DNA of 52,266 nucleotides from Lachnospiraceae bacterium. Its GTDB lineage: Bacteria > Bacillota > Clostridia > Lachnospirales > Lachnospiraceae. Position numbers and translations under genes: made by a program. Under the pieces are notes generated by a model. It saw only the letters and a list, made by a program, of their open reading frames with translations, was not told where the DNA came from and did not search any database. How positions within the stretch are numbered: position 1 is the stretch's first letter; every line of letters starts with the position of its first letter. This document shows, piece by piece, positions 19,501 to 31,675 of this stretch. The stretch covers positions 1 through 52,266 of the forward strand of contig JAJQCQ010000052.1 in NCBI GenBank assembly GCA_021202635.1. Reading direction: 5' to 3'.

Positions 19501-20507
19501 GAGGCATCGGTATACCATCCCATGCTTTTCAGGGTAACGGACCATGCGTAGGCGCCTGTCGCCTCCGGGAAATCTTCTTTGGAAATACCGGCATAGTGCA
19601 GGCAAAAAGAAACGAACATGGCGTCCCAGTCTCCGTAGGGATTCCCTGCCCATTCCCCATAGCGGGTGTAACCCTGAATCGTCTCGCCGTCGTCCGTCCG
19701 CTTATAGTTGGCGGTGCTTTCCGTGTAACCAAGCTGGCTCTTCGCCACAGCTACAAGATCATCCGCCCAATTCCCGCTCAGAGACGCAGGAAGGGTCGCC
19801 TCCCAGTCAGACGCGCTCTCCAGGTCCGCTGTCTCATCAATCAGGCACTCTACCGTGTGGGTGTGTTCCTCCAACGTACAGATCAGCTGTTTTTCATAGC
19901 AGACGTCGGTATGCGTGTGCCCGGTCTCGGACTCACATTCTTCCAGTCCGCAGATCAACACCTGCTCCGTCAGATAGCAGTCCTCCGTATGGGTATGCCC
20001 TTCGCTCTCCTCCAGGCCGCAGGTCAGCTCCATAGTATAGCAGCTGTCGGTGTGCGTATGGCCTTCGCTTTCCTCCAGGCCGCAGATCAGATTTCCTTCC
20101 TCATCAGTACAGCTGTCTGTATGCGTGTGCCCTTCGCATTCCTCCAGGCCACAGGTCAGCACCTTTGTATAGCAAGCGTCGGCATGCGTATGCCCTTCGC
20201 TCTCCTCCAGGCTGCAGATCAGCGTTCTCTCCGTCTCATAGCACGCTTCGGTATGAGTATGACCGGACGTCCCCTCCGATTCCTCCTGGCCGCAGATCAG
20301 CACAAGTTCATAACAGCTGTCGTCATGCGTGTGTTCCGTTTTGCCGCAATAGACTTCATTGGCCAGCGCCGCGCCGGTCAAGCGAAGCTGCCAGTATACG
20401 CCCATGCTCACAAAGGCGGCAAGCAGCAGCACAACGCAGGCCAGCCGCCTGCGCGCGTGTCGTTCCATCTTAAATTTTTCAAGATAGATATTTACCAGGT
20501 TCTGCAC
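10587..20507 (-). CDS. Giant LPXTG-type surface adhesin with pseudo-CHAP domain and BspA-type LRRs
   Basis: A 3306-residue secreted, wall-anchored protein, probably the pilus tip or accessory adhesin. The order is: signal peptide ending about ALA (residue 49); eight Cys/His modules (54-221); a CHAP-like domain (about 245-430) in which Asp295 and Arg378 replace the catalytic Cys and His; an acidic Ser/Glu linker (about 433-500); a beta domain; BspA-type LRR_5 repeats (about 640-1110, for example GITAIGAYAF and TLTSIGKYAF); a long series of adhesin beta domains; and a SpaA/CnaB domain (LTKVD lysine, LVEVTAPDGY glutamate). It ends with the sorting signal LPESG (3267-3271), a membrane helix and a basic tail. 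The start is GTG with AAGGGAG upstream. It is the last gene of the pilus operon, 141 bases after signal peptidase. The frame is intact over 9.9 kb. Confidence 0.92.
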   Translation of the reverse strand: MQNLVNIYLEKFKMERHARRRLACVVLLLAAFVSMGVYWQLRLTGAALANEVYCGKTEHTHDDSCYELVLICGQEESEGTSGHTHTEACYETERTLICSLEESEGHTHADACYTKVLTCGLEECEGHTHTDSCTDEEGNLICGLEESEGHTHTDSCYTMELTCGLEESEGHTHTEDCYLTEQVLICGLEECESETGHTHTDVCYEKQLICTLEEHTHTVECLIDETADLESASDWEATLPASLSGNWADDLVAVAKSQLGYTESTANYKRTDDGETIQGYTRYGEWAGNPYGDWDAMFVSFCLHYAGISKEDFPEATGAYAWSVTLKSMGWYTDASEAASAEKPETETEAVSEDTADGTPVAGDLVFFDTAGDGKIDRVGIVIKVDEGNGKLTVIEGDYAEKEEAADAVCKTEYSISDKTIVGYGMVSAAQKSGEADETEGENEEALAEAESEESLIGTESEEDRTGAESEEATDSESESEAETDSALESEAVGESTGAAALVQQTLDVTSDATTITVNGLLPEGASITATPVEVEIEGENVLLAFDISIYYENADGETVVFEPEDGTITVTIASAEITGGSSVYYVPEEGEPEKLDTAEAEDGAVAFDAEHFSVYAVTSSDSVEATGTITSTEGNTITWTIYKDSETGERTLVFSGEGSIPDYTSGTLTPWYSYCSTSGNTLDKLVIEDGITAIGAYAFHQSYVTEVSFPDTLTSIGKYAFCYSRSLTSVVIPDSVTYIGTYAFSYSHLEEIDLGEGVQTIESFAFYATYSGSGITVSLPDSLTSLGADAFNQACAYEVSDTNTNYKVIDGVLYSYDGTTLIDYPKYKVLDTYTVPSEVTTIATGALRYVLYVNSLVIDHAVTFQNSGYSMSNSNYRSIYLADGVVITGNAAFQTDTNLTEIRLPEGTTFTLNVSCLGGDSSLTYLKIPDGTTSIQNQSLSGLTGLETLYYDATSASSIASNVFGGTSGISYDLIVGTNVDTLPAGFTYLVANANTISFEGPNAIYITDGALANAPSPLTGISGWIYVDEYGVVYQLDVDNDTATLLYVPDSYVDGNGETQMLTEYTVPASFTVSGESDSTANATYAVTTVTSNALKYADNLAAITFADASRVTLKSYALANCETLKSVTDSAASTTVTTVEDAEKMGFAAIGTNAFYNTGLTTNTPALSEDTMDGSASISASITSSTITVTVSSGGAGTWTPNTDAGGTVLTTGGYVALTGQEVVVSTTVNNTSGTTQTYRLYMTCTDEDFSVNHGPGTTFTAGGVTITCVQDPNDPCSFYYEFTLSEGETLTLDLTCSYPNGADGGGLTATCAIMETTTAGGVTTVTGTKSTSTEELQIWWKTEKDDYTLAKTNGSQSSVQIKANEDGAYLASGLQYTITLTQDADKNSSKGEDYVTSVEYSDVITLPAGVTWDADVLEAIRNGSYTRSSGNTTTFSVDGTIIVTLAMTANSALALQKAVLSVDDKNQVVLTWTVKNIGTANLANNTFTLTVASEALDITLSSDDPNAEVFTENDNKVSNTVTSKVHYTFSDDVDSTASVTKELTVKEGNVAVSKQSASSVTYFGEDLTYEVSVYNDGATDYTCTSGTLTGSYTYTDTLPDAVYISAANMETMFQEAEEMGTPLTVTISGAVLGVSKTAVDADGSGNTVYLNSGNTSSDTETEGNTITITCERSGTEGAYTYSYKISVTNASGSEVSETSGADLEALLQGIGYGVTRSAIYTCTWTLRDQTTVTSDENKLTIQAGETLTWFILSTIKSTLQYLDDSDWPNEYPNSETVTITNTAAYLYDPAGKQIVKTGSVSKSVKREARIDLAVYDSEGNDLSSAVAASDGEAITYSQTFTHYGDGSYDDLAMVSDLYGSQYLLVPISLNNGNSSITGNIWTASTAGESWPGTGVTTYDADGDGIADYYVLGEGTYTNVAVGTYTKSDGTTGTLTASNISVGINANETDVVLGNTAYTYSGVHTEIDWYFDEMDGENYTINVEYQTLVDYGSQPSYTLGNVVWMNDRTGSRIYATLWGGGTIINYDKEIVTTRQDANDPDQDVVEDDDQSEIGEGETVLYRLTLYSTGDAGATFTLSGTNIADALPETYGTFEWSKANVKITDIVVVPADGTDDSNKVTGYASLEDDSNWSIETSWNGLTSSGQYYIIWDDDVNVTFTGNAAVYIYVELTFPENGVQVATAGGGTETVDQWDNYVAAVGGTTVSNTFYVYRNPATVTHILKEEGSATLTKGVYTLAQSSDSIKEISGNINLYPSGSNRDNYNNEDSAYRYIWYYVEVYNDSYSRLYINDLYDTLPEGFNYVMMGSTGDVRNDGRLMYIYAKSNVGTTVSSSDTSSSHWLVEQETGVTYMSATVTASTLSDGTLVFQISAGDGGTYSIKYDDDLGQYYLDHGESIVFGYICQIGTYAYTEDSATNTIAMSYTDYTEAGGVNVAEDHEVQGKDFSVDGGASTWYNGDTNDGSTTVKNSEQVSYDDGTDNSYWLTSEVTVTRGSIVPGASKSTVGYRYLANSDKTVLTYENSVNAGAVVYWEATLSNSGTVAIYDYSVTDVMPTPYVFAEDVTYSIVSSNGTTSASGTLFSFPDAEDVITLTTDSVVTITYKNEKNADVTADLTVDGSAVTISSVNGEFTVKLSMSGDDVVLEIGFTDTVWSIPEGGYLTLGYASYNPTGEYENKTYLNSVTLTPVLQDFDYAQSGKITSDGTGVYATSPVTVSTGASTSASKTVQQKSTDPAVTYTAAESGAENNSIVLTSQDGIFTYTLSVTNESSTYAMTELVVIDNLPTVGDHMTYDTTDRGSEYAVQLATDPNFTVVITSPTEIDSTYVKSLGTSTAADGSTVYTYLFNGYQSSEPTGGNEPYYTIEYSTISTSEYFTEDDEHGTVTASDQWTNDRAYASSIDTVTAIRVIIKDSSEVIIPAGATVSISFDAQVKPTVTTDPQTGTTTTTYPDPGATAWNNFDYDYTMNMTGSAWLSAMPLEVGVQVPSAPKLEKRLVDLDGNAYTAAEDTAFTFIVYEGSEQTDSNGDSYSSLAELETALNSAGITYKEITVTVEKDHSNSGYISLGGSDWSGWTWTQGNTYTIAEFFSDNTDDTYTFKSWTAANGTSGDTANGTSYTFTYDRDKTLYLTAVNTNTLWKLCLTKVDANIQDANTGAYTKTLEGAVFALYTKNENLKMSDADYQSLTLADLPDQTITIGDGADAVTWYLTAVQTTGTDGTLSFADLSEEEYYLVEVTAPDGYNLDATPISVSRGDSTEVARTVTNSPGFELPESGGPGTWMFTLTGLILSGSAAWMLLYRCRKKRRVFRG
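19842..20354 (-). repeat. Eight tandem Cys-His modules in the adhesin
   Basis: Residues 52-222 of the giant adhesin form eight units, each with a Cys, a short Glu-rich stretch, then HTH and, three residues on, a second Cys (for example C142, H150, H152, C156). The spacing from HxH to the second Cys is constant in all eight. The regular Cys/His/His/Cys sets suggest metal binding or disulphide-linked beads. The DNA repeats are similar but not identical. Confidence 0.85.
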
Positions 20508-20648: not shown

Positions 20649-21245
20649 TCAGCTGATCAGTGAAATCTGTTTCAGCGGCCACACCCGCAGTATGACCTTC
20701 CCGACAATCTGGTCCACTTCAATACAGCCTATCACACTGCTTCGGGAATCAATCGAGGTCGTTCGGTTGTCTCCCATGACAAAATAGCGGTTTTCCGGCA
20801 CCTGATAGGGGTACGTGATATCCGTCTCCCCCAGGGATTTTTCCGTCACATACGGCTCATCGAACAATTCCCCGTTGACCGTTACATTGCCATCCTCATC
20901 AATATCAATATAATCTCCCGGACCGCCGATGACACGCTTCAAAAGCAGCTTGTTCTGATAATAAAATCCGATCAGATCTCCCGTCTCAAACTTACCGGTT
21001 TTCACCAGAAGAATAATATCGCCATCCGACAGAGTCGGCTCCATACTGGTACCGGCCACCTGCAGCATCGGAAGAAAAAGAGTCGCCAGCAGGACAGACA
21101 CCGCCGCCACGATAATCAGCGCGTAGATCGTCGTCCGCAGAGTCTGCAGGTAACGTCTCTGATATTGCAGCCGCTCCCGCTCCGCTATAACGGCTTCCTC
21201 ACTGGGAATTTTCGCTGTGCGCAGGTCAAGATGATGCTCTGTCAA
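20649..21245 (-). CDS. lepB: Signal peptidase I (pilus-operon type)
   Basis: A 198-residue membrane-bound peptidase with one N-terminal membrane helix (about residues 36-60). It has the serine motif GTSMEPTL (Ser67), the lysine motif LLKRVIGGPGD (Lys103) and the FVMGDNR box. No ATG fits. The frame opens with TTG at 21245, preceded by AGGAGG nine bases upstream, so a TTG start is likely and may keep expression low. Placed between sortase and adhesin, it resembles SipA-type peptidases of pilus islands, which help process or chaperone pilin precursors. Confidence 0.9.
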   Translation of the reverse strand: MTEHHLDLRTAKIPSEEAVIAERERLQYQRRYLQTLRTTIYALIIVAAVSVLLATLFLPMLQVAGTSMEPTLSDGDIILLVKTGKFETGDLIGFYYQNKLLLKRVIGGPGDYIDIDEDGNVTVNGELFDEPYVTEKSLGETDITYPYQVPENRYFVMGDNRTTSIDSRSSVIGCIEVDQIVGKVILRVWPLKQISLIS

Positions 21246-21305
21246 ATGCGGTCGCCTCCTGTTTCACTTTTTCCTGTTTCCCATCAAAACACACACAGGC
21301 CAGCT

Positions 21306-22199
21306 TCACTGGCCGCTTCGTTCTCTGTCTTTTTTGTTTCTCCTGCTTCTGACCCTGTGAGAATCCCAGGACACCCAGATCAGCAATAGCAGCACCATCG
21401 GCACCGCCAGCATCGGAGCAGCCAGAAGCGGCGACAGTTTCGTCGCCTCCGCAGTCACACTGATCAGCTTCTGATCTGCGTTCTCGACCCGCACGCCCCT
21501 CACCAGAAGCCGTTCACTGTTGACACCGTAGGGGGTGCAGGTCAGCAGGGTACAGTAATCCTTTCCCTCTTCGATATACAGTTTCTCAATCTCGGTCGGC
21601 TCGACAATGGAAATCTGGTCAACCTCATAGGTCATCACCCGGTCCAGAACCGTGATCGTAAACGTATCCCCGATCTCCATCTGATCCAGGTGGGTAAACA
21701 AAAGCGCGCTCGGCAGCCCGCGGTGTGCGGAAATCACGCAATGGGTGCTCTCCCCGCCCACCGGAAGGCTGGTTCCTTCCAGATGTCCAGAGGCGGTCTG
21801 CAGCACATTCACATCCGTCCCATGGTAGATCGGAAGCTGCACATCGATTTTCTCTATGGTAACATATCCCATCACGCCGGTCCCGCTGACATCCAGCAGG
21901 TCCCAATAATCCTCATCCACCAGCTCCGGGGAAGGAATCGTCCGCGAGGAACCGATTTCCGCCAGCATCGCGTTATAAGCTTCCGCTGCCTCAAAGTACG
22001 CGGTATAATCGGTTGCCGACAGGTTTGCCACCGCCGCATCATAAGTGGCTATGGCACGGGAAGTCACCTTTTCGTTCCACCAATTGCTCACAGAAGGGTA
22101 GGCCAGAATAACAATCCCGGCCAGAAGCATACAGACCAGAAGAATCGTCGTAAGCCGATCCCTTCTTACGTCCCGCTTCGTTTTTTCAAGCCGCTTCAT
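21306..22199 (-). CDS. srtC: Class C sortase (pilin polymerase)
   Basis: A 297-residue membrane transpeptidase that links pilin subunits through isopeptide bonds. It has two membrane segments (about 18-35 and 255-272), as class C enzymes do. The catalytic residues are His159 in SAHRG, Cys221 in TLLTCTPYG and Arg230 in NSERLLVRG. The N-terminal half lacks a clear DPW/DPF lid motif; DYWD at 97-100 occupies about that region. It lies downstream of the shaft pilin with a 159-base gap and upstream of the signal peptidase by 60 bases. Confidence 0.93.
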   Translation of the reverse strand: MKRLEKTKRDVRRDRLTTILLVCMLLAGIVILAYPSVSNWWNEKVTSRAIATYDAAVANLSATDYTAYFEAAEAYNAMLAEIGSSRTIPSPELVDEDYWDLLDVSGTGVMGYVTIEKIDVQLPIYHGTDVNVLQTASGHLEGTSLPVGGESTHCVISAHRGLPSALLFTHLDQMEIGDTFTITVLDRVMTYEVDQISIVEPTEIEKLYIEEGKDYCTLLTCTPYGVNSERLLVRGVRVENADQKLISVTAEATKLSPLLAAPMLAVPMVLLLLIWVSWDSHRVRSRRNKKDRERSGQ

Positions 22200-22358
22200 G
22201 CTTTCCTGGCCACTCCTCTGTATTACAATTCTCTCGTCTCACTTGCCAGACTCAAGCGCCCTTTGCCAAAGCTTTTGCGGCCTGCGACGAGACAGTTATG
22301 TCATGCGATTCGCGCCCCGGCGACCGCAAAACACATCCATTATTTCGCAACGAATCCT

Positions 22359-24113
22359 TTACTGCTCCCCGCTCTTTCTCATGCGGCTTCTGGTAATCAG
22401 CAACACCGCCGCCAGAAGGACAAGGATCGTACCAATCACATAGAAGATCGTCGTGCCGATGCCGCCGGTGGAGGGCATGGACGTACCTGCGTTGTTCACT
22501 ATGGTCACATCAACAGAACTCTTGTCAGCATCCGTAGATTCTGCTGCCTGGCCGTCATCAACCGAAACTGTCAGACTGCTTACCTCATCCACACCGTCAT
22601 TATCCCTATCTTCATACGTTGCGGTAATTACTATCTTTACAGGATTAGAGAGAAGATTATAGCCGTCTGGAGCCTTTGTCTCCTCCAGATAATAAGTTCC
22701 TGCATCCAGGCCAGTGATAGAGAAGTTTCCATCTTGATCCGATTGCAGCGTAGAGGCGTATGGTGTGCCTTCCGCAGAAGTCTTATAAGTCGTCCAGCCA
22801 GTGACATTACCAGAGGAATCCACGATAACGTAATGCTTTTCACTGCTTGCGTCTAAATAATAAAGTACAAACTCCGCATCTTCCAGCATTGTCGTATACG
22901 AACCGCTTCCCGTATCGTAAGAGTCCCCATCCACCTTAGTTACATCCAGTTCAAAAGTGAACACAACTGCCTCTTTCGTAGTCGTCTTACCTGTTCCGCT
23001 TCCGTTTGGATTATTCGAATATGTCAAGTAAACTTCATTGGCGTTTCCATCATTGCCAAAAACAGCGCTGTTGTTTAATGTGGCACTGTAAGTTACAACA
23101 ATTACGCTGCTTGATGTTACAGAAATAGGATCACCCGAAGTGTCTGTCAAAGATTTCACATCATTAATCGTAAGCGTCAGAACTTTACCGCCATAATATG
23201 GGGCATCCGGATCTGAGATGCCAGAAACATTTACCAAACTAACGGTATATCCGCCTCCCACTTCCGTCCCACTGCTCGAAGATGCGTTCGGATAAACAGT
23301 CACGGTCACGTCCGATGCCGCAATCGTTCCAGTAGTAGCCGTATCCAGCGTCAATCCCGCAGACAAAGTATCGGTAAATATAAGCTGGTAAGTTGAATAA
23401 TCCGCAAGTGTACTCGGAAGCGTGGCAGTCAGCTTATAGGGAATGCTGTCGCCAATGCTGTAGTCCGCGTAATCCTGCCAGGCACCTGTGCTATCCTCCT
23501 GCACTTCCTTTTCGACCGTCGATATCGATGACTTCGGAGTCGCAGTTACATCACTGACTACTTCCAGAATATATCTTGTATATGCATCATCTGTTCCATC
23601 CAGAGAGTTATCTTTATCTTTCACAAGATAATAGCCCGCGGCCAGACCAGAGATCGTGTAATTCGAAGTATTATAGATACTTGTAGCTATATCCGTTGCA
23701 GTAGTTGTCAGATACTTGCTGACAATATCCGCAAATGCCTGTGCGACAGCACTGTCCTTTGTGTTATTACTATCACTGCCCAGCACTTCCGCAACAGAAG
23801 CCGCATCCGTGCAGCTTGCAAATGGGGTAGTTCCACTCACTGTTAATTCTTTTAGCGCTTCCAAAAGTGTTTTTCCATCTACTATTGAGGTTATATCAAC
23901 CCCACTTCCCCATTCAATATTGGCAAGGACATAGGGATCACTCGCTGTGCCATTTCCTGTGAGGTCGCCTGTAAAAATCTGGTATGCCTCATATGTATGT
24001 CCAGAAGTTGAATTATCAATCGTAATTGTGTACGCCAGTGCCGTCACGCTCATCGCCACTGCCATTACCAGTGCCAGCATCAAACCGGCGATTTTTCTGA
24101 ATCTTCTCATCAT
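22359..24113 (-). CDS. Major (shaft) pilin, isopeptide-forming, SpaA/FimA type
   Basis: A 584-residue secreted subunit. The signal peptide ends about ALA (27). There follow an N-terminal pilin domain, a middle domain (about 200-385) and a C-terminal CnaB domain (about 386-545) with the lysine of LDVTKVDG and the E-box YYLEETKAPDGYNL. The sorting signal is MPSTG (546-550), with Met in place of the usual Leu, then a membrane helix and basic tail. Lys194 in ATPKSS, at the end of the first domain, is the best candidate for the pilin-motif lysine; the more familiar VYPK form is absent (VYPNA at 273-277). The start has AAGGAGAG upstream. As first gene of the operon it should be the most abundant product. 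Confidence 0.92.
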   Translation of the reverse strand: MMRRFRKIAGLMLALVMAVAMSVTALAYTITIDNSTSGHTYEAYQIFTGDLTGNGTASDPYVLANIEWGSGVDITSIVDGKTLLEALKELTVSGTTPFASCTDAASVAEVLGSDSNNTKDSAVAQAFADIVSKYLTTTATDIATSIYNTSNYTISGLAAGYYLVKDKDNSLDGTDDAYTRYILEVVSDVTATPKSSISTVEKEVQEDSTGAWQDYADYSIGDSIPYKLTATLPSTLADYSTYQLIFTDTLSAGLTLDTATTGTIAASDVTVTVYPNASSSSGTEVGGGYTVSLVNVSGISDPDAPYYGGKVLTLTINDVKSLTDTSGDPISVTSSSVIVVTYSATLNNSAVFGNDGNANEVYLTYSNNPNGSGTGKTTTKEAVVFTFELDVTKVDGDSYDTGSGSYTTMLEDAEFVLYYLDASSEKHYVIVDSSGNVTGWTTYKTSAEGTPYASTLQSDQDGNFSITGLDAGTYYLEETKAPDGYNLLSNPVKIVITATYEDRDNDGVDEVSSLTVSVDDGQAAESTDADKSSVDVTIVNNAGTSMPSTGGIGTTIFYVIGTILVLLAAVLLITRSRMRKSGEQ

Positions 24114-24350
24114 GCTCTCTCCTTCTTGTTCTTAATCCTAACGTCTTTTCTATATATAAACAGGGTATCTCAAAATATCTCAGAAGCAACTCGCTCCCTC
24201 CTTCGGAAATGTCCTTCCTCTGCATCTGATCCACCCATGTCCATATCTAAGAAGCATCATTGCCCGTTCCCTCCCCTCACATCAGAGTTATCCTCCGATT
24301 TTACGAAAGTACGGCAGGTAAAACTGCTAAAACCTTCCTACGTCTGTATT
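24114..24350 (-). other. Leader of the pilus operon
   Basis: About 236 nt separate the predicted start of transcription from the shaft pilin ATG. No gene and no strong hairpin is seen. A leader this long leaves room for post-transcriptional control, but nothing specific can be read from it. Confidence 0.4.
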
Positions 24351-24356
24351 TTTATT

Positions 24357-24365
24357 ATTATATCA
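24357..24365 (-). promoter_or_regulatory. Extended -10 promoter of the pilus operon
   Basis: On the minus strand TGA precedes a perfect TATAAT (TGATATAAT). No consensus -35 box lies at the right distance, which fits an extended -10 promoter or one that needs an activator. Confidence 0.55.
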
Positions 24366-24508
24366 CAGAATCCACAAAGCGCTGATACCATTGGTGCTGT
24401 CTAACCCGACCATTCGTTCCATTTTCCTGTCACCTGTCACAGTCATTGGGTGACTAATGTGACGATTGGATTGAAATTGAATAGAATAACACCTTTCTCC
24501 CCTATCCG

Positions 24509-24556
24509 CCCGCGCCTGACGTTAGCCGGAAATACTCCTTACGCGGCCCTGCGCAT
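24509..24556. repeat. Dispersed repeat, copy B
   Basis: Matches 191-236 at roughly 85 percent by eye, sharing CCTGACGTTAGCC-like and CCTTACGCGGC blocks with a one-base length change. It is intergenic, next to the terminator at 24569-24596. Confidence 0.6.
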
Positions 24557-24568
24557 AAAAGAAAGCGC

Positions 24569-24596
24569 AAAAAAAGACAGCCGGTTCGGGCTGCCT
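24569..24596 (-). terminator. Terminator downstream of the AAA-ATPase remnant
   Basis: On the minus strand GGCAGCC pairs with GGCTGTC around a short loop, followed by seven T. A wider 10-bp inverted repeat (AAAGCGCAAA at 24562-24571, TTTGCGCTTT at 24601-24610) flanks it. Confidence 0.8.
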
Positions 24597-24712
24597 TTCC
24601 TTTGCGCTTTTGTACGCCTGCCATTCTATTTTATCCGGAGTCCTATGTCAATCGCATATCCGCTTCTGCAAATCGCCAGGCGATTAATCCGGATTGTTAC
24701 ATAAACTCTATT

Positions 24713-25200
24713 TTACACCGATGTCCTTTCTCTTTCCAGTTCACGCATATAGCTGTACTTTGATTCTGTCCGTATAATCCGGTCAAATTCCTGTTCGAGT
24801 TCCTTATTCGGAATCCGCACACAGCCATTGTTGTAATTCAAATATCCATACACGGTCATCACAGACAAAATCTCATCCCTGTACGTTAACTTTGTTGCCG
24901 TCGAAGCATATTCTGAAAGATCTGCCTCAACCGGCTCTCCAGCTGCAATGAGCATCACCGCCTCTCTTACACCGTCAACATCAACATCCCAGCGCTCCTT
25001 ATAGTTCATGTAAACCTGTTTTACAGTTTCTCCTGTGTTGCTGACAAAGGCAAACATACCACGGCGGTCATCATCAAAAATAACACTGTAATAACTCGAG
25101 ATTCTGTGTTACAAAGCTTAATAAAGAATTTTGAATAGCCGTCCATTCTCATGTGTTCAATCAGAATAGCAGAGTTGTTTTGTAGGTAAGTTACATTCAT
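24713..25200 (-). pseudogene. Frameshifted fragment of an AAA-ATPase-like / PD-(D/E)XK family gene
   Basis: The minus strand encodes MNVTYLQNNSAILIEHMRMD and on to KLCNTE. After what looks like the loss of one base near 25101-25104 the reading moves to another frame, with SSYYSVIFDDDRRGMFAF, then GETVKQVYMNYKERWDVDVD, then YGYLNYNNGCVRIPNKEL and a stop. This is the late part of the large family of AAA-ATPase-like proteins that end in a DUF1703-type nuclease domain. Both the Walker motifs and the nuclease end are absent. It is therefore a double-truncated, frameshifted remnant, in keeping with the mobile character of this zone. Confidence 0.75.
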
Positions 25201-25279
25201 GCATGTTTCCTCCTTTTTCAGAAATTGTAGGAAACATTATAAACGATAACTGATGCAAGTAACACATAAACCAGAAACA

Positions 25280-25343
25280 ATATCTCCACCTTTTATGGCA
25301 CCAAATACCGTATTTGCTGGATATTTGAAAAAGGTGGAGATAT
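25280..25343. repeat. 15-bp inverted repeat with nested palindrome
   Basis: Perfect arms 25280-25294 and 25329-25343 (ATATCTCCACCTTTT and its complement) enclose 34 bases that hold a second palindrome, CAAATAC-C-GTATTTG. It lies about 100 bases upstream of the small RNA promoter. It could be a terminator, a miniature element or part of a longer regulatory RNA. The rest of 25201-25443 shows nothing further. Confidence 0.65.
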
Positions 25344-25443
25344 GTGGCAGGTTGAGATAATTTGACAGATGGTAATATACTGCTTTTATATCTATGAATA
25401 AAAACGTAGCCTTCGCATATATTAAAAATATCTGGCAGAACTC

Positions 25444-25472
25444 TTGACTTTCCGAGTGATTTCAAGTATTAT
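25444..25472 (+). promoter_or_regulatory. Promoter of the abiF-like RNA
   Basis: TTGACT, a 17-base spacer and TATTAT. Transcription would begin at about 25479, so the product is a short RNA ending at the terminator at 25517-25546, before the Abi start codon. Confidence 0.8.
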
Positions 25473-25478
25473 ACAGCC

Positions 25479-25546
25479 AGTGAATGCGTTGCAGACACCT
25501 GTGAGGCCTGTGACCGGAGGAGAACCTGCGGGGTCTCCTCTTTTTT
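25479..25546 (+). ncRNA. Candidate abiF RNA (small RNA upstream of an Abi gene)
   Basis: A strong promoter and a clear intrinsic terminator define an RNA of about 68 nt. The terminator stem is GAGGAGA (25517-25523) with TCTCCTC (25534-25540), followed by six T. The body holds small internal complementarities, such as CCTGTGAGG (a 3-bp stem) and ACCTGTGA/GCCTGTGA near-repeats. It ends 21 bases before the Abi gene. An 'abiF RNA' motif has been described from comparative genomics directly upstream of Abi_2-family genes, and the place, size and terminator fit. I cannot align it to the Rfam model. It probably acts as the antitoxin or guide-like partner of the Abi protein. Confidence 0.7.
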
Positions 25547-25567
25547 CTGTGATTAGGTGGTAGTTTT

Positions 25568-26509
25568 ATGGCAAAGTGTTTTTTGACATACGAGCAGCAG
25601 ATAGACAAGCTGATAAATGAAAAAGGACTGCTGATTGCGGATCGCGAATATGCAGAAAATGTGCTAAAACGAACCAGTTATTATTCTTTAATCAGCGGCT
25701 ATAAGGACTTGTTTAAAAATCCTACAACGAAGGCATACAGAGATGGTACACGTCTTGAAGACATTGTCGCGTTGTATGACTTTGACCGTATGCTCAGAGA
25801 ACTTTTCCTGAGTTATATCTTACGGGTAGAAAACCACATCAAGTCACTACTGTCATATGCGTTTTGCGAAAAATACGGAGAGTCTCAGAATGCGTATTTA
25901 AATAAACAAAATTATAATTATTCCGGCAGGAGAAACAAAGCAGACATTGATAAGCTGGTTGATCATGTGTTGGCAAAATATGTCACACATAATACGGATT
26001 ATCATTATATCAATCACGCACGGACTGTCCATGGGAATGTCCCATTCTGGATTTTAAAGAATGCATTAACTTTTGGCAATATTTCAGTCATGTATTCGGT
26101 ACTTCCACAGGACATACAGTTCAAGATTAGCAGTGAGTTTCAAGGAATCAATGAAAGCCAGTTAAAACAGGTTTTGCGATATCTTGTTCGCTTTCGCAAT
26201 GTTTGCGCCCATGGAGAACGCCTGTTTTCCTATAGGAATGTGGAAAGTATCCCAGATTTTCCTATACATAATAAGCTACAGATCCCTAAAAATGGCAATC
26301 AGTATATTTATGGAAAACATGACCTGTTTGCAGTCATGATTACCTTAAGGTATTTATTGCCGAGAGAAGATTTTCGGGAGTTAAAACGAAGGCTGACACG
26401 CCTGATAGACAATCATTCCAAAAAGCAACAAGGAATAACTCAAACCGAATTGCTGATAAAAATGGGATTTCCAGAGAACTGGAACAAAATCACCAGATAT
26501 AAATTGTAA
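25568..26509 (+). CDS. abiF: AbiF/AbiD-family abortive-infection HEPN protein
   Basis: A 313-residue protein of the Abi_2 family. Near the N-terminus are the conserved LTYEQQIDKL and YYSLISGYKDLF. A HEPN-type RNase motif is visible as RNVCAH (Arg210 to His215, R-x4-H), inside RFRNVCAHGERLF. A second Arg/His pair, RVENH (86-90), may help form a composite site. HEPN proteins of this kind are thought to cleave RNA and stop growth during phage infection. It follows a small terminated RNA by 21 bases and has AGGTGG as ribosome site. Its DNA is clearly more AT-rich than the flanking metabolic genes, which suggests transfer. Two terminators follow it. AbiD versus AbiF naming cannot be settled without alignment. 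Confidence 0.87.
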   Translation: MAKCFLTYEQQIDKLINEKGLLIADREYAENVLKRTSYYSLISGYKDLFKNPTTKAYRDGTRLEDIVALYDFDRMLRELFLSYILRVENHIKSLLSYAFCEKYGESQNAYLNKQNYNYSGRRNKADIDKLVDHVLAKYVTHNTDYHYINHARTVHGNVPFWILKNALTFGNISVMYSVLPQDIQFKISSEFQGINESQLKQVLRYLVRFRNVCAHGERLFSYRNVESIPDFPIHNKLQIPKNGNQYIYGKHDLFAVMITLRYLLPREDFRELKRRLTRLIDNHSKKQQGITQTELLIKMGFPENWNKITRYKL

Positions 26510-26529
26510 ATGTATTACAAAACTTACAA

Positions 26530-26559
26530 GGCATCGTTACAGCGGTGCCTTTTCTTTTT
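26530..26559 (+). terminator. Terminator after the Abi gene
   Basis: GGCATCG (26530-26536) pairs with CGGTGCC (26543-26549) with one wobble pair, followed by TTTTCTTTTT. Confidence 0.8.
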
Positions 26560-26563
26560 CAAA

Positions 26564-26587
26564 GAGTCGAGCAATCGGCTCTTTTTT
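26564..26587 (+). terminator. Second terminator after the Abi gene
   Basis: GAGTCGA pairs with TCGGCTC around a GCAA tetraloop, followed by six T. Tandem terminators seal off the Abi unit. Confidence 0.8.
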
Positions 26588-26758
26588 AATGCCAGAAAGC
26601 GAGGTGACGGAGCGTGGCAACAAGCAGGATTAAATTTGTCCCCACCCCAGATCACCGCAAAATTACAGGATTTCCGGTGACTTTCCCCCTTCCGGAGCAT
26701 ATTTTATAACAGGCGGATGGACGTTCCGCCGCGATGATGTGAATCAGGAGGTGTATCG

Positions 26759-26908
26759 GTGAAGCCGTTACTGGAACTCAATCACGTAAGCTATGCGTAC
26801 CACAGCAAAACCGGCGAGACGGCCGCCCTGTCCGATCTCTCGTTTCAGGTATTTCCCGGAGAATTTATTGCTGTCATAGGGCCGAGCGGCTGTGGCAATG
26901 CGATGTGA
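26759..26908 (+). pseudogene. ABC transporter ATPase truncated inside Walker A
   Basis: The frame begins with GTG at 26759, with AGGAGG seven bases upstream, and reads as a normal SsuB/TauB/LolD-like ATPase start: MKPLLELNHVSYAYHSKTG, then ALSDLSFQVFPGEFIAVIG. It ends PSGCG followed by Asn-Ala-Met-stop in place of the invariant Lys-Ser/Thr. Homology thus stops at 26896, within the P-loop codons. The abrupt junction beside a serine recombinase indicates integration or rearrangement at this site. The rest of the gene is not in the window. Confidence 0.8.
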
Positions 26909-26930
26909 CAGCTGCGGCAACATAAGGAGA

Positions 26931-26998
26931 AGATGTGCATCCGCCCGGAGGGTTTGCTCCGAAGGGAAGCCCGGAGCGCTTTTCTATTGGAGAAAAAT
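26931..26998. repeat. Dispersed repeat, copy C, at the recombinase 3' end
   Basis: Resembles 229-295, sharing TGTGCATCC, CGGAGG, GGGAAG and CTATTGG, with an imperfect hairpin in the same place. It lies between the cut ABC gene and the recombinase and overlaps the last codons of the latter. Confidence 0.55.
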
Positions 26999-28615
26999 AT
27001 GGGCGACCTCCCCGTCCCAGATGACCTTTTCCAGAATCAGTCGCAGGTACTCTCTTTTCTCGGGCACGCTCAGGGTATCGAAACAGTTTTGAAAGGACGA
27101 CAGCTGCTCCGCCAGGATTGCCGGCTGCAAAGAGTCGTCCCGCATGCTCTGCCCCTTTTCCTGCAGTAGCGCTTTTTCCTTTTCCAGAGCTGCACACGCT
27201 TCGTTCAGCTTTTGTACCTGCCCTTCAATCTCGCAGACAAAAGCTTCGCTTCCGGATGACCTGGCAAGCGCACCGATCAGGTTCTGGATTTCTGTTTTCC
27301 GTTTCCGGATTTCTTCTTCCAGAACATCCGCCGCGTTCCCCGTCTCGCCCCTGGTATCGTCCATCGCATTCTTAATCTTTTCGAGCATGGCAGGAAGACT
27401 TGCATTCTCGTCCATGTAACTCAGCAGATTGCGGCAGACCAGCTCATCCAGCGTATTCCCCTGCACGTTCTCTGCTGCGCATTTCTTTCCATGTGTAGCA
27501 TCTTTATATTCACAAAGATAGGAAAACCTGCGTTCCCCATTTTCTGTCACCTGTCTGGCATCGTAATACTTCGGACGCATTGCATGGCCGCAGGAGCAAT
27601 AAAGCAAACCGGAAAGAAGAGCCACAGAATTGTGAGGTTTTCGCCAGCCGTCCCCTTTTCCTTTGTTGTTTTTCAGCAAAAGCTGGGCTCGGGCAAAATC
27701 CTTCCCTGATATAATTCCTTCATGCCGTCCGCGGGCAATAATCCATTTCTCTGGTTCTGTATCCTTGCTCTTGTATTCTGCCGAAGATGTCTTCCCATAA
27801 GAAATCAGGCCATACTGGCCATCCGCTTCTTCTTCCTCCATGCAGACCTGGCAGCCCAGATTCCAGAAATAATCATAGCCTTCCCTATCCGCAGTACAGT
27901 ACACCGGATTTGTCAGAATATCCCGGATCGTTATCACCGTGTACTTTTTTCCCCGTTTTGTAAGAATGTCATGTGTCAGAAAATAGTCTGAAATGCCTGT
28001 CAGAGATTGTTTTTCCAGATATTCCGAAAAGATAAACCGAACCGTCTTCAGCTCCTCTTCATCGGGAACCAGCCGGAAGCTCGTTTTCTTCTTGCCGCTG
28101 ACGGTAACCTTCGCCTCCGATTGCGCCCGGAACCCCAGCGGAGTATTGCCGCCCAGCCAGCGTCCCTTTCGGGCCAGCAGAATCATATTATCGCGGACAC
28201 GCTCCGCAATCTGTTCCCGCTCCATCTGAGCCAGAACCCCGGCAAAATACAGCATCGCCTTGCCAATCGGTGTGGTTGTATCGAACCGCTCTTTGATGCT
28301 GATAAAAAATACATTTTTCTTATCGAGTTTTTCAACCAGATTTGCGATATCCGCTATATTTCTTCCCAGACGGTCCAGTTTATAGCAGACCAGATAATCA
28401 CATTCACCCTGATCAATCCGTTCCATCATTTTTCGGAACTGCGGACGTTTCGTATCCTTGCCCGAGTATCCCTCATCTTCAAACTCCAGAATTTCCGCCT
28501 GATCCGCATCTTCTATATAGTTCTCCACATACTCCCGGCACATAACGAGCTGATTCTCCACGCTCTCGCCGCGTCCGGTCCATTTTGACTTCCGGCTGTA
28601 TATAAAAATTCTCAT
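26984..28615 (-). CDS. Large serine recombinase (site-specific integrase)
   Basis: A 543-residue DNA recombinase. The N-terminal resolvase domain (about 1-150) has Ser10 in FIYSRKS as likely nucleophile, and DEGYSGKDTKRPQF and YKLDRLGRN as further active-site blocks. Next come the recombinase domain (about 160-270), a zinc-ribbon-type region (LLYCSCGHAM near residue 345 with later Cys), and a coiled coil (about 415-480, rich in Glu/Lys/Leu). Full length suggests activity. Such enzymes insert phages and conjugative elements without a recombination-directional bias unless helped by an accessory factor. It sits 76 bases from an ABC ATPase gene broken in its Walker A codons, as expected when a serine integrase lies next to its attachment site. 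GGGGAAG precedes the ATG. Confidence 0.93.
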   Translation of the reverse strand: MRIFIYSRKSKWTGRGESVENQLVMCREYVENYIEDADQAEILEFEDEGYSGKDTKRPQFRKMMERIDQGECDYLVCYKLDRLGRNIADIANLVEKLDKKNVFFISIKERFDTTTPIGKAMLYFAGVLAQMEREQIAERVRDNMILLARKGRWLGGNTPLGFRAQSEAKVTVSGKKKTSFRLVPDEEELKTVRFIFSEYLEKQSLTGISDYFLTHDILTKRGKKYTVITIRDILTNPVYCTADREGYDYFWNLGCQVCMEEEEADGQYGLISYGKTSSAEYKSKDTEPEKWIIARGRHEGIISGKDFARAQLLLKNNKGKGDGWRKPHNSVALLSGLLYCSCGHAMRPKYYDARQVTENGERRFSYLCEYKDATHGKKCAAENVQGNTLDELVCRNLLSYMDENASLPAMLEKIKNAMDDTRGETGNAADVLEEEIRKRKTEIQNLIGALARSSGSEAFVCEIEGQVQKLNEACAALEKEKALLQEKGQSMRDDSLQPAILAEQLSSFQNCFDTLSVPEKREYLRLILEKVIWDGEVAHIFLQ

Positions 28616-28798
28616 GATTACTTCCCCATTCCAATCCGCGTTGTTTTTACAATTAGAGAAGCTGATCTCTTCTATACAGCCTTACGAGTGAAATATTATT
28701 TTTATGCCTGCTTTTTACCAGCCAAGGCTGCTGACCATTTAATATCTGTCCGAAAATGCGGAAAGCTTTGACAAAGCAGTTCAAAAAGAAGGGGATTG

Positions 28799-29944
28799 TC
28801 AGATGAATTTCCCTTTGTGTATCATATGCTGAATTTCCAGGCGGTCATTGATCAGCAGGATATTCGCGTAACACCCCGGCTGCAGACTGCCATAGTCCCT
28901 GTCGATGCCTATACAGCGCGCCGGGTTGACGGCTGCCGCCCGGACTGCACTGCCGAGAGGGATTCCCATAGAGAGCACTGCCCTGCGGAGGCAATCCATC
29001 AGGTTCGTGACACTGCCGGAAATCGTCCCCGGTTCCTGCGTCAGGACCGCCCGATTTCCGATCACTGTCACATCCTGTCCGCCAAGCGTATACTGTCCGT
29101 CCGGCAGACCGGCAGCCATCATACTGTCACTGATCAAAATGACATGATCATCCCCGAAGAGCTGAAATGTCATGCGAACCACAGCCGGATGAATATGTAT
29201 TCCATCCGCAATCAGCTCTACATCCGCGCCTGCTTCCCATGCAGCTACAATGGGTCCCGGCATCCGGTGCGAAATCCCGGGCATCGCATTGTAAAGATGT
29301 GTCATATGAGAGGCACCCGCCGTGAACGCTTCTTTCGCTGTCTCATAGTCGGTACAGGTATGGGCAAGTGAAACTACCACCTGACCCTTCAGCTTTTGAA
29401 TGGTCTCCATCGCATCCGGTTCTTCCGGTGCCAGATCACACAGCTTAAACATCCCCTTCGCTTCCTTTTGCAGGCGCAGGAACATCTCTGCGTCCGGCCG
29501 GTGGATATAGGCTTCGTTTTGCGCCCCCTTCTTTTGGGGGCTGATAAACGGTCCCTCCATATTGATACCAACCAGATCCGCTCCTGCCCGGTTTTCATAC
29601 CCCGCAGCTGTCCTCGCTATCTGCGTCAGCTTTTCCTCACCGTAGGTCATCGTAGCCGGACAGATCGCTCCGATTCCCTGCCGTAACTCATACGCAGCGA
29701 TCCTCGAGAGCGCTGTTTCTGTCCCATCGCAAAAATCAACCCCGTCACATCCATGAAAATGAATGTCCACAAGCATGGGAATTGCTTTCAGGCCACTGGC
29801 ATCGATCTGGCATTCCATTCCGGCGCTTCTCAGAGAATCCGCATCCAATGCCTCAACGATCCGTTCTCCCCGGATAAAAAGATCTTTCTTTACAAAAGTT
29901 CCGTCCTTTTCAAACACCTCAGCGTTTTTAATTGAGAGTCCCAT
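28799..29944 (-). CDS. nagA: N-acetylglucosamine-6-phosphate deacetylase
   Basis: A 381-residue amidohydrolase that converts GlcNAc-6-phosphate to glucosamine-6-phosphate and acetate in the cytosol. The metal motif HFH is at 62-64, followed by MEGPFISP with its conserved Glu, LAHTCTDYE, THLYNAMPG, ADGIHIHP and the catalytic Asp of LISDSM. The ATG at 29944, with GAGG just upstream, is preferred to a TTG eight codons earlier. It is the last gene of a minus-strand cluster with nagB and a class II aldolase, so the products flow to fructose-6-phosphate and glycolysis. Confidence 0.94.
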   Translation of the reverse strand: MGLSIKNAEVFEKDGTFVKKDLFIRGERIVEALDADSLRSAGMECQIDASGLKAIPMLVDIHFHGCDGVDFCDGTETALSRIAAYELRQGIGAICPATMTYGEEKLTQIARTAAGYENRAGADLVGINMEGPFISPQKKGAQNEAYIHRPDAEMFLRLQKEAKGMFKLCDLAPEEPDAMETIQKLKGQVVVSLAHTCTDYETAKEAFTAGASHMTHLYNAMPGISHRMPGPIVAAWEAGADVELIADGIHIHPAVVRMTFQLFGDDHVILISDSMMAAGLPDGQYTLGGQDVTVIGNRAVLTQEPGTISGSVTNLMDCLRRAVLSMGIPLGSAVRAAAVNPARCIGIDRDYGSLQPGCYANILLINDRLEIQHMIHKGKFI

Positions 29945-30034
29945 AACGCCTCTATCCCTTCTGATCAATTGTGGCCAACCCAGCCTGCTGCCTTACTATC
30001 CCATCCATGTTCCGTGACCTGTTTTCTTAACTCT

Positions 30035-30901
30035 TCAGGCCTTTCCGATACTTCCAAAGAGCGTCATCTTTTCGATGCATACCCGCTTCATCGCTTCGAT
30101 TCCCGGTTCAAGCACAGTCTGCGGAATATACCCTCTTTCCTCCTGATCTTTTTTCTGAATAAAATATTCTTTTATTCCTTCGGTAAATGCGATCTGGCAC
30201 TCCGTATTCACATTCACCTTGCAGATGCCCAGATCAATCGCTTTTCGAACCATTTCAGACGGAATACCCGAACCGCCGTGGAGTACCAGAGGGAGATCCC
30301 CCACCTGCTCCCGAATGGCAGCCAGTACATCAAAATTCAACCCTCTCCAGTTGGAGGGATATTTTCCATGGATATTGCCGATACCGGCAGCCAGAAAGTC
30401 TACGCCCAGAGCAGCAATCCGCGCACATTCAGCGGGGTCTGCGCATTCTCCCATGGCAATGACACCATCCTCCACTCCGCCGATGGCCCCCACCTCCGCT
30501 TCCACCGAGATGCCCTTCGCATGTGCAAGCTCTACCACATGACGTGTCTTTTCAATGTTTTCATCAATGGGATAGCCGGAACCATCAAACATCACCGAAG
30601 AGAATCCGTTTTCAATGGCATCCAGTGCTTCTTCATATGTACCGTGATCTACGTGCAGAGCCACCGGAACGGTAATATTCAGAGCATTCATAAAATCCCG
30701 AACCATGTCCGAGATGGTACGGTAGCCGCCCATGTATTTCGCAGGTCCCCTGGAAACGCCCAAAATAATGGGTGCGTGGTTTTCCTGTGCGGCAAGAAGG
30801 AACGCGCGGACTCCTTCCATATTATTCAGGTTAAAATGGCCTACCGCATAATGCCCTTTCCTCGCGTCATCGAGCATCGCTTTTGCAGATACAAGTCCCA
30901 T
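30035..30901 (-). CDS. Class II fructose/tagatose-bisphosphate aldolase family (possibly IolJ-like)
   Basis: A 288-residue zinc-dependent aldolase. Metal-binding HVDHG lies at 83-87, with VEAEVGAIGG, GIGNIHGKYP, LVLHGGSG and VNVNTE as further family blocks. AGGAGG stands before the ATG. It is placed between nagB and nagA, which favours fructose-1,6- or tagatose-1,6-bisphosphate as substrate. However, the inositol operon 6 kb away lacks its own aldolase IolJ, and IolJ belongs to this same family and has the same size. This protein is thus a fair candidate for cleaving 2-deoxy-5-keto-gluconate-6-phosphate. Sequence alone cannot decide. Confidence 0.87.
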   Translation of the reverse strand: MGLVSAKAMLDDARKGHYAVGHFNLNNMEGVRAFLLAAQENHAPIILGVSRGPAKYMGGYRTISDMVRDFMNALNITVPVALHVDHGTYEEALDAIENGFSSVMFDGSGYPIDENIEKTRHVVELAHAKGISVEAEVGAIGGVEDGVIAMGECADPAECARIAALGVDFLAAGIGNIHGKYPSNWRGLNFDVLAAIREQVGDLPLVLHGGSGIPSEMVRKAIDLGICKVNVNTECQIAFTEGIKEYFIQKKDQEERGYIPQTVLEPGIEAMKRVCIEKMTLFGSIGKA

Positions 30902-30943
30902 AATACATACCTCCTGAACCTTCTGCCCGTTTTGCGGGCATCA

Positions 30944-31675
30944 TCAGATATTCATTTCCGACATGGCTTCCTCATCTCCGATGAGCGTAAAGTCCGGATG
31001 CATCTGAAGAATGGAAGCTGGTACCCGTGGTGTCACCGGTCCAAAAAAGGCTTCCTTCAGAATCGCGGCCTTGCTCTTCCCATTCGCGATCATCAGGACC
31101 TTATGCGCCTGCATGATGGTTTTGATCCCCATGGTATAGGCCTGACGCGGTACTTCGTCTTCGTTCTCAAAGAAGCGGGCGTTTGCCTCGATCGTACTCT
31201 CAAGCAGATCAATACAGTGTGTACCAAGCTCAAAGGCCGAATCTGGTTCATTAAAGCCGATATGACCGTCAATTCCGATACCAAGGAGCTGCAGATCAAT
31301 ACCGCCTTTCTCCGTGATCAGGCGATCATAACGGGTACATTCTGCCTGCACATCCAGATTGGTGCCATCCGGAACGTTGATATTTTCCGGACGGATATTA
31401 ATGTGTCTGAAAAAATGCTCGTCCATAAAATACCGATAGCTCTGTGGGTTGTCGCCTGAGAGTCCGCGGTATTCGTCCAGATTGATTGTAGTTACCTCTG
31501 AAAAGTCAATGTCGCCCTTCTGATACCAGTCAATCAGCTGTTCATAGAGACCGATCGGCGTACTGCCGGTCGCCAGGCCAAGGACACAGTTTGGTTTCAT
31601 AATCACCTGCGCACTGATGATATTTGCGGCCTTTCTGGACATGTCCTTGTAAGTCTTAGCCTTGATGATTTTCAT
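30944..31675 (-). CDS. nagB: Glucosamine-6-phosphate deaminase
   Basis: A 243-residue enzyme converting glucosamine-6-phosphate to fructose-6-phosphate and ammonia. Family blocks are GLATGSTPIG, TTINLDEY with the catalytic Asp, GIGIDGHIGFNEP with the catalytic His, and SKAAILKEAFFGPVTP. The length is typical of the Gram-positive form, which lacks the allosteric C-terminal extension. The ATG at 31675 has GGAGG eight bases upstream; a longer frame would overlap the GH105 gene and is not needed. It is coupled with nagA through the aldolase gene. Confidence 0.95.
   Translation of the reverse strand: MKIIKAKTYKDMSRKAANIISAQVIMKPNCVLGLATGSTPIGLYEQLIDWYQKGDIDFSEVTTINLDEYRGLSGDNPQSYRYFMDEHFFRHINIRPENINVPDGTNLDVQAECTRYDRLITEKGGIDLQLLGIGIDGHIGFNEPDSAFELGTHCIDLLESTIEANARFFENEDEVPRQAYTMGIKTIMQAHKVLMIANGKSKAAILKEAFFGPVTPRVPASILQMHPDFTLIGDEEAMSEMNI

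What the first reader, a model, noticed from the sequence alone, without database searches (positions are those of the whole stretch)
25444..26587. Complete abiF-RNA/AbiF-type unit: promoter, small RNA, terminator, HEPN gene, tandem terminators
A near-consensus promoter, an RNA of about 68 nt with its own intrinsic terminator, and an Abi_2-family HEPN gene follow one another without gaps, and two terminators close the unit. Terminating the RNA before the gene means the RNA is made in excess over the mRNA, as an RNA antitoxin needs. An abiF RNA motif is known from comparative genomics, and recent work proposes that Cas13 arose from AbiF-type RNA toxin-antitoxins. This copy shows the R-x4-H RNase motif (Arg210-His215) and is AT-rich compared with its surroundings, so it is probably a transferred defence module.
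Basis: partly seen in the sequence, partly recalled or inferred. Interest (0 to 1): 0.82.

Follow-up and report, generated by a model that had tools for sequence, protein, structure and literature searches.

The report
AbiF toxin with unlisted RNA antitoxin
A gut bacterium carries, in the remains of an old phage, an RNA-cutting toxin gene preceded by a small folded RNA that probably keeps it in check; the RNA differs from the catalogued kind, and some phages carry the RNA alone, perhaps to disarm such toxins.

Summary
The unit is real: promoter 25444-25472, structured RNA 25478-25543 ending in a terminator, Abi_2/AbiF HEPN gene 25568-26509, two terminators. Yet the RNA is a true structured family: 36 sequences show two covarying hairpins. 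A new covariance model finds it in 70 of 397 family genomes, and it tracks the toxin clade: beside 25 of 26 toxins at >=40% identity, 0 of 35 below. I read it as a type III toxin-antitoxin pair with an RNA class absent from Rfam, in a prophage relic. Unexpected: of 99 host-genome copies, 33 have no abiF in the fetched locus, and 12 of 19 viral records with the RNA have no Abi_2 anywhere, two of them over 110 kb. Relics explain many; phage RNA decoys against AbiF are a testable alternative. Antitoxin action is inferred. The original AbiF-Cas13 paper, which has its own RNA models, could not be read.

The parts
25415..25424 (+). motif GCATATATTA about 20 nt upstream of the -35 box, near the left edge of homology with some relatives
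   Evidence: pattern CATA[AT]A[ACT][TA][AG] in 20 of 44 abiF-linked places, 3 of 31 solitary ones, 3-5% of shuffles; role unknown
25444..25472 (+). sigma-A-type promoter TTGACT-17-TATTAT
   Evidence: promoter pattern in 39 of 44 abiF-linked places
25478..25543 (+). small structured RNA, proposed RNA antitoxin
   Evidence: R1 85.3 bits; covariation
25488..25514 (+). hairpin 1: 7-bp stem with conserved loop, core element
   Evidence: 99.2% of cells paired, 5 of 7 pairs with two-sided changes; top 5 covarying column pairs
25516..25541 (+). hairpin 2: intrinsic terminator with UGCG loop, followed by T-run
   Evidence: 8 of 10 pairs of this helix with two-sided changes
25555..25560 (+). ribosome binding site AGGTGG
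   Evidence: sequence
25568..26509 (+). abiF (Abi_2/AbiD/F HEPN RNase toxin), 313 aa
   Evidence: Pfam PF07751, PADLOC AbiD, PHROG 2158, PDB 8vz6
26195..26212 (+). catalytic motif R210-N-V-C-A-H215
   Evidence: R210, N211, A214, H215 invariant in 34 rows
26528..26551 (+). terminator 1
26561..26584 (+). terminator 2
   Evidence: fold; not listed by the scan
26587..26634 (+). prophage relic shared with locus L033: start of a tail tape-measure gene (VATSRIK at 26614-26634)
26984..28615 (-). serine recombinase/integrase next to the unit
   Evidence: Pfam, PHROG 95 integrase

Best explanation
A type III (RNA-protein) toxin-antitoxin module of the AbiF kind, carried in by a prophage. One promoter drives an RNA of about 66 nt that mostly stops at its own terminator; occasional read-through makes the abiF mRNA. 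The folded RNA, mainly hairpin 1 and its conserved loop, is inferred to bind the AbiF HEPN dimer and block its RNase site. Loss of the RNA (inferred trigger, recalled from other type III systems: phage takeover of transcription) would free the toxin to cut RNA and stop growth. The RNA belongs to a class that Rfam 15 does not hold and that goes with one clade of AbiF toxins. Shown here: anatomy, covariation, association with the clade, predicted fold of the toxin, mobility. Inferred: binding, neutralisation, trigger, defence.
For: Toxin: Abi_2, invariant R-x4-H, Foldseek 8vz6 E 2.7e-10, TM 0.76/0.80. RNA: covariation in 36 sequences, 93.4% of cells paired against 79.4% in shuffles and 46-60% when slid. 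Cognate pairing: 25 of 26 toxins at >=40% identity lie beside the RNA, 0 of 35 below 40% (61 of the 79 rows used); in a tree of 34 toxins the 19 with the RNA are one side of a branch, support 82/86. Trans action suggested by position: RNA only downstream of the gene in L163, on both sides in L160, two tandem copies in L012. Same layout shown by experiment for RCd22/AbiFCd (PMC12373285, sections seen).
Against: No RNA or protein was tested. Rfam abiF does not match. The host's second Abi_2 gene (L002) has no such RNA upstream, so not every Abi_2 protein uses one. Five relatives (L066, L068-L071) have none in the fetched loci either. The cognate count was made on rows that I chose, with 18 rows dropped (fragments, weak rows, the window's own). 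Support for the clade is moderate, and the tree's RNA labels outside R1 were partly given by eye.
Confidence: 0.82

Rival explanations
1. The RNA is only a cis-acting leader (attenuator or riboswitch) of abiF, with no antitoxin role in trans.
For: It sits between promoter and gene and ends in a terminator in most of the loci seen; RCd22 also lowers expression in cis (PMC12373285).
Against: RNA only downstream of the gene in L163, on both sides in L160, tandem copies in L012; solitary copies with intact hairpin 1 in 12 viral records; the first-copy hairpin 2 of L012 lacks a T-run. RCd22 acts in trans too.
Confidence: 0.1
2. It is a divergent member of the Rfam abiF RNA family, merely missed by the model.
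For: Same position, similar size, toxins of the same Pfam family; RCd22 also carries two hairpins, of which the Rfam model found only one in phiC2, so the model misses divergent copies. L079-L082 have similar-looking upstream hairpins that it also did not list at its cut-off.
Against: No RF03085 hit at E<=10 at 25300-25700, nor at E<=1 in 20 loci with the RNA, one of them the window's own copy. Consensus folds differ: abiF 6 bp with 1-nt and 6-nt bulges, here 7 bp with 3-nt and 1-nt. No contig is shared by the R1 and RF03085 lists.
Confidence: 0.3
3. Solitary RNAs are only relics: the toxin gene was lost first and the RNA decays (rival to the decoy reading).
For: 17 of 99 places hold partial or broken abiF; a promoter pattern is kept in 14 of 33 solitary against 39 of 44 linked places. 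The three g207 copies (L184, L188, L191) show changed or unpaired bases. Temperate-phage copies lie where morons sit, as beside the tape-measure gene in L211.
Against: In 12 of 12 viral solos all 7 hairpin-1 pairs form, though the search patterns fixed part of both arms. Between related phages L198 and L201 the RNA is 64/65 identical, with 60/100 just before and 350/465 after the block; but a 785-nt piece further upstream is 96.8% identical, so recombination may explain this. Two of these records exceed 110 kb and have tRNA genes in the stretch around the RNA.
Confidence: 0.58
4. The RNA is just a terminator with a chance second hairpin.
For: Single-sequence fold not better than shuffles (z -0.85); the best weak Rfam hit is terminator-like.
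Against: Hairpin 1 covaries at 5 of 7 pairs with 99.2% pairing and lies outside the terminator.
Confidence: 0.02

Closest known systems
AbiF/AbiFr of a Prevotellaceae bacterium (PbAbiF, PDB 8vz6; Zilberzwige-Tal 2025, known here only through citing papers)
   Same: Abi_2 HEPN dimer with R210/H215, ncRNA beside the gene; only significant fold match
   Different: 21% identity in the structural alignment; the RNA sequence of 8vz6 was not available to me, so RNA kinship is untested
AbiFCd/RCd22 of C. difficile prophage phi027 (PMC12373285)
   Same: One promoter, RNA with terminator before the gene, two hairpins, prophage home, R202/H207 motif
   Different: RCd22 matches RF03085 (37.6 bits in phage phiC2), the window RNA does not; protein about 26% identical
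Rfam RF03085 abiF RNA
   Same: Small hairpin RNA beside Abi_2 genes
   Different: Different consensus and fold; in this family it lay beside 6 toxins 25-31% identical to this one
pseudo-ToxI of phage PhiTE (PMC3475682, abstract and outline seen) and RNA anti-CRISPRs (PMC10651486, abstract and outline seen)
   Same: Phage-borne copies of a defence RNA without its protein
   Different: Those were shown to act; the phage copies found here are untested

Membership tests
Abi_2/AbiD/F toxin family (PF07751) | profile match over cut-off | tested here: met
   153.4 bits against 25.6; PADLOC AbiD 1.4e-65
HEPN RNase | R-x4-H motif and HEPN fold | tested here: met
   invariant in 34 of 34; model pLDDT 94.2 matches 8vz6
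HEPN RNase | RNase activity | not testable with these tools
   needs an assay
Rfam RF03085 abiF RNA | covariance-model score at or above 37 bits | tested here: not met
   no hit in window, none at E<=10 at 25300-25700; controls hit
Type III toxin-antitoxin | RNA gene beside toxin gene with terminator between | tested here: met
Type III toxin-antitoxin | toxin harmful alone; RNA binds and neutralises it | not testable with these tools
   needs an experiment
ToxIN-like type III systems | tandem-repeat RNA antitoxin (recalled) | tested here: not met
   single unit in the window; two tandem copies only in L012 among the loci examined

The most novel reading that the evidence does not exclude
Phages use solitary copies of this RNA as decoys against AbiF: an RNA-based anti-AbiF counter-defence, as pseudo-ToxI is against ToxIN. 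Twelve of 19 viral records with a strong match carry the RNA with no Abi_2 gene anywhere in the record; two exceed 110 kb and have tRNA genes near the RNA; one phage RNA is 98.4% identical over 62 nt to the RNA upstream of an abiF gene in another phage record.
Probability: 0.32. Interest if true: 0.86.

Novelty: new variant of a known kind. Interest (0 to 1): 0.64.

Why it matters
AbiF is held to be the ancestor of Cas13 (PMC12373285, PMC12737573), so a second, clade-bound class of AbiF RNA shows how far the RNA partner could change, and gives many natural cognate pairs for finding which RNA features the HEPN dimer reads. In this bacterial family the new model finds RNAs more often (70 of 397 genomes) than Rfam abiF (4 of 200 over its cut-off, 15 of 200 at E<=0.001). 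Solitary copies in phages make one question directly testable: do phages defeat AbiF by copying its antitoxin?

Tried and rejected
Rfam search: no match. RNAfold z-score: uninformative. Reading both hairpins as two copies of one motif: dropped, since hairpin 2 has a UNCG-type loop (UUCG in L062) and is lost or replaced in three phage copies. Mutual information in the first 38 positions, to look for a further helix: the top five pairs are all hairpin 1. Blast of the window RNA against named phages and plasmids: no match; of the L201 and L205 RNAs against phages: no match. Viral scans with an AGTGGTTG-type and a GATCGCG-type pattern found nothing. L216 and L218 (28 bits) were left out of the viral count. 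A common neighbour gene of solitary RNAs was looked for by eye (output cut in the middle) and not found; neighbours searched in Pfam include a zeta toxin (L184), PBECR4 (L182), an IrrE-type peptidase (L186) and YefM/ParE (viral L207).

Rows dropped: one search used 61 of 79 rows (left out: own row, second pieces, short and weak fragments; four of the fragments, G104, G136, G147 and G198 C74, are 44-86% identical over 29-69 residues). Of one search's 92 rows, 5 under 30 bits were left out; four of the 70 genomes in its tally rest on such rows alone. Host and viral counts overlap: L190/L214 and L193/L215 are the same two prophages, identical over 668 bases. Of the abiF-linked viral records L209, L212 and L213 have the same RNA (76.7 bits each).

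Full report
Observation. A promoter (TTGACT-17-TATTAT, 25444-25472) precedes a small RNA that ends in an intrinsic terminator; an RBS and a 313-aa ORF (25568-26509) follow, then two terminators. The gene has 37.8% GC against 50.4% for the window. The only + strand promoter patterns listed for 24500-27500 are at 25352 and 25444, so RNA and gene probably share one promoter.

Toxin. Pfam Abi_2 at 1.1e-44, PADLOC AbiD at 1.4e-65, PHROG 2158 'abortive infection resistance protein' at 3.1e-69. R210, N211, A214 and H215 are invariant in 34 aligned sequences. The AlphaFold2 model (pLDDT 94.2) has one Foldseek match at E<=0.001 in the PDB: 8vz6, PbAbiF dimer with ncRNA (E 2.7e-10, TM 0.76/0.80); sequence search gives the same single entry.

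RNA. Rfam abiF (RF03085) does not match the window at its gathering score or, at 25300-25700, at E<=10, nor 20 loci with the RNA at E<=1 (one of them, L092, is the window's own copy). It does match L076 and L078 and phage phiC2's RCd22 (37.6 bits), so the model works; it did not list L079-L082 at its cut-off, which have similar-looking hairpins. Upstream stretches of relatives align over 71 columns (36 rows). Hairpin 1 (columns 11-17/31-37): 99.2% of cells paired, 5 of 7 pairs with two-sided changes. Hairpin 2, the terminator: 8 of 10 pairs of its helix. Overall 93.4% of cells are paired, against 79.4% in shuffles and 46-60% when slid. RNAalifold finds the same two hairpins. In 70 distinct rows that passed a filter on core letters, the five most covarying column pairs are all hairpin 1; G26, not part of the filter, is invariant and A18 is present in 69. 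RNAfold on the window alone prefers a shifted pairing, so single-sequence folding misleads here.

Range. Model R1 finds the RNA at E<=0.001 in 70 of 397 genomes of the family (four of them only by rows under 30 bits), 17 of 391 of the class and 3 of 299 of the phylum, all three of the same family and one the window's own genome. RF03085 is over its cut-off in 4 of 200 family genomes and at E<=0.001 in 15 of 200; none of its 17 places lies on a contig that also holds an R1 place.

RNA class follows toxin clade. Using 61 of 79 rows, 25 of 26 toxins at >=40% identity have R1 within 500 nt (the other starts at base 2 of its contig) and none has RF03085; of 35 below 40%, none has R1 and 6 have RF03085. 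In a tree of 34 toxins the 19 with R1 are one side of a branch, support 82/86, 83% of 200 bootstrap trees. A relative outside that group, L067, has two units with hairpin 1 only, each with its own T-run; R1 did not report it.

Position. R1 lies only downstream of abiF in L163 and on both sides in L160 (a weak third case at 29 bits in L179); L012 has two tandem copies, the first without a T-run. This favours action in trans over a pure leader.

Mobility. Window bases 22001-31000 were compared with eight loci of close relatives (L006 and L046 are one and the same place): homology covers only the unit or part of it in each. L033 shares 25361-26634 at 94.4% identity and continues into a fragment of a phage tape-measure gene; the window keeps only its first codons (VATSRIK). 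A serine integrase lies beside the unit. The module thus looks like a prophage moron left in a decayed prophage.

Solitary RNAs in host genomes. Of 99 R1 places (87 from the family sample at >=39 bits, 12 added by the class sample), 44 have an intact abiF downstream, 2 only upstream, 17 a partial or broken abiF, 3 lie at contig edges and 33 have none in the fetched locus (up to 6 kb either side, less at contig ends). A promoter pattern is kept in 39 of 44 linked and 14 of 33 solitary copies.

Solitary RNAs in viral records. Three pattern scans of IMG/VR fetched 19 stretches, 18 confirmed by R1; with L217, which lies in the same record as L088, 19 records carry a strong match. Seven have abiF beside it. 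The other 12 have no Abi_2 anywhere in the record (records may be fragments); two of the 12 are the prophages L190 and L193 of the host count. The largest, 163.5 and 112.8 kb, carry phage genes: tail fibre, PhoH and ligase in one, tape measure and anaerobic ribonucleotide reductase in the other. tRNA genes lie in the stretches around the RNA in five of the 12. All seven hairpin-1 pairs form in 12 of 12, though the patterns fixed part of both arms; hairpin 2 is lost in L202 and L204 and replaced in L206. In the related phages L198 and L201 the RNA is 64/65 identical, against 60/100 in the 100 nt before the block and 350/465 after it; a 785-nt piece further upstream is 96.8% identical, so recombination could also explain it. 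The L203 RNA is 98.4% identical over 62 nt to that upstream of an abiF gene (cut by the record's end) in MT837082. Solitary RNAs as a set keep the fold (98.6% pairing in helix 1), but they may have inherited their covariation from linked ancestors, so this does not prove selection after separation.

Reading. The window unit is best explained as a type III toxin-antitoxin of the AbiF kind with an RNA antitoxin outside Rfam. RCd22/AbiFCd gives the experimental precedent (PMC12373285; abstract, sections 6, 7, 11, 12 and part 1 of the discussion seen). Solitary host copies look largely like relics. Solitary phage copies may be relics of morons too, but those in large phages fit a decoy role, for which pseudo-ToxI (PMC3475682, abstract and outline) and RNA anti-CRISPRs (PMC10651486, abstract and outline) are precedents. 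A canonical abiF RNA in cyanophage S-CREM1 has been reported without a test of function (PMC9964418, passages).

What is in print. The listings of searches, and passages of PMC8040213 and PMC12948488, showed no description of this RNA class or of phage-borne AbiF decoys. The library is open-access only. Zilberzwige-Tal 2025 (Cell) could not be read; PMC12804078 (passages) says that it has its own models AbiF5_iter3 and diverse_rna_xinsi, which may cover this class. Statements about PbAbiF and its RNA come from PMC12373285 and the review PMC12737573 (passages).

Noticed in passing
L002 (own genome, C80:23720-24235): A second Abi_2 gene in the same genome with no R1-type RNA in its locus.
   Followed up: partly
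25415-25424: Motif of the form CATA[AT]A upstream of the promoter in 20 of 44 abiF-linked places but 3 of 31 solitary ones: regulator site or left edge of a mobile cassette.
   Followed up: partly
L184, L188, L191: In three genomes of one genus the RNA precedes a small ORF and a zeta-toxin-like gene (Pfam Zeta_toxin in L184), with changed bases in the RNA; relic or regulator unknown.
   Followed up: partly
L214/L215 (same prophages as L190/L193), L204: Solitary RNA near a phage regulator (phrog_36 in L204; a similar-looking protein in L190/L193) in temperate phages.
   Followed up: partly
L067: Two hairpin-1-only RNA units in tandem upstream of abiF, each ending in its own T-run.
   Followed up: no
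10587-20507 and 20649-24113: Very large surface protein (3306 aa) ending in an LPxSG-like anchor, beside what look like a signal peptidase, a sortase and a pilin-like gene (read translations; not searched).
   Followed up: no
26760-26907: ABC-transporter ATPase start that breaks off after the Walker A region, between abiF and the serine integrase (read); possible insertion site.
   Followed up: no
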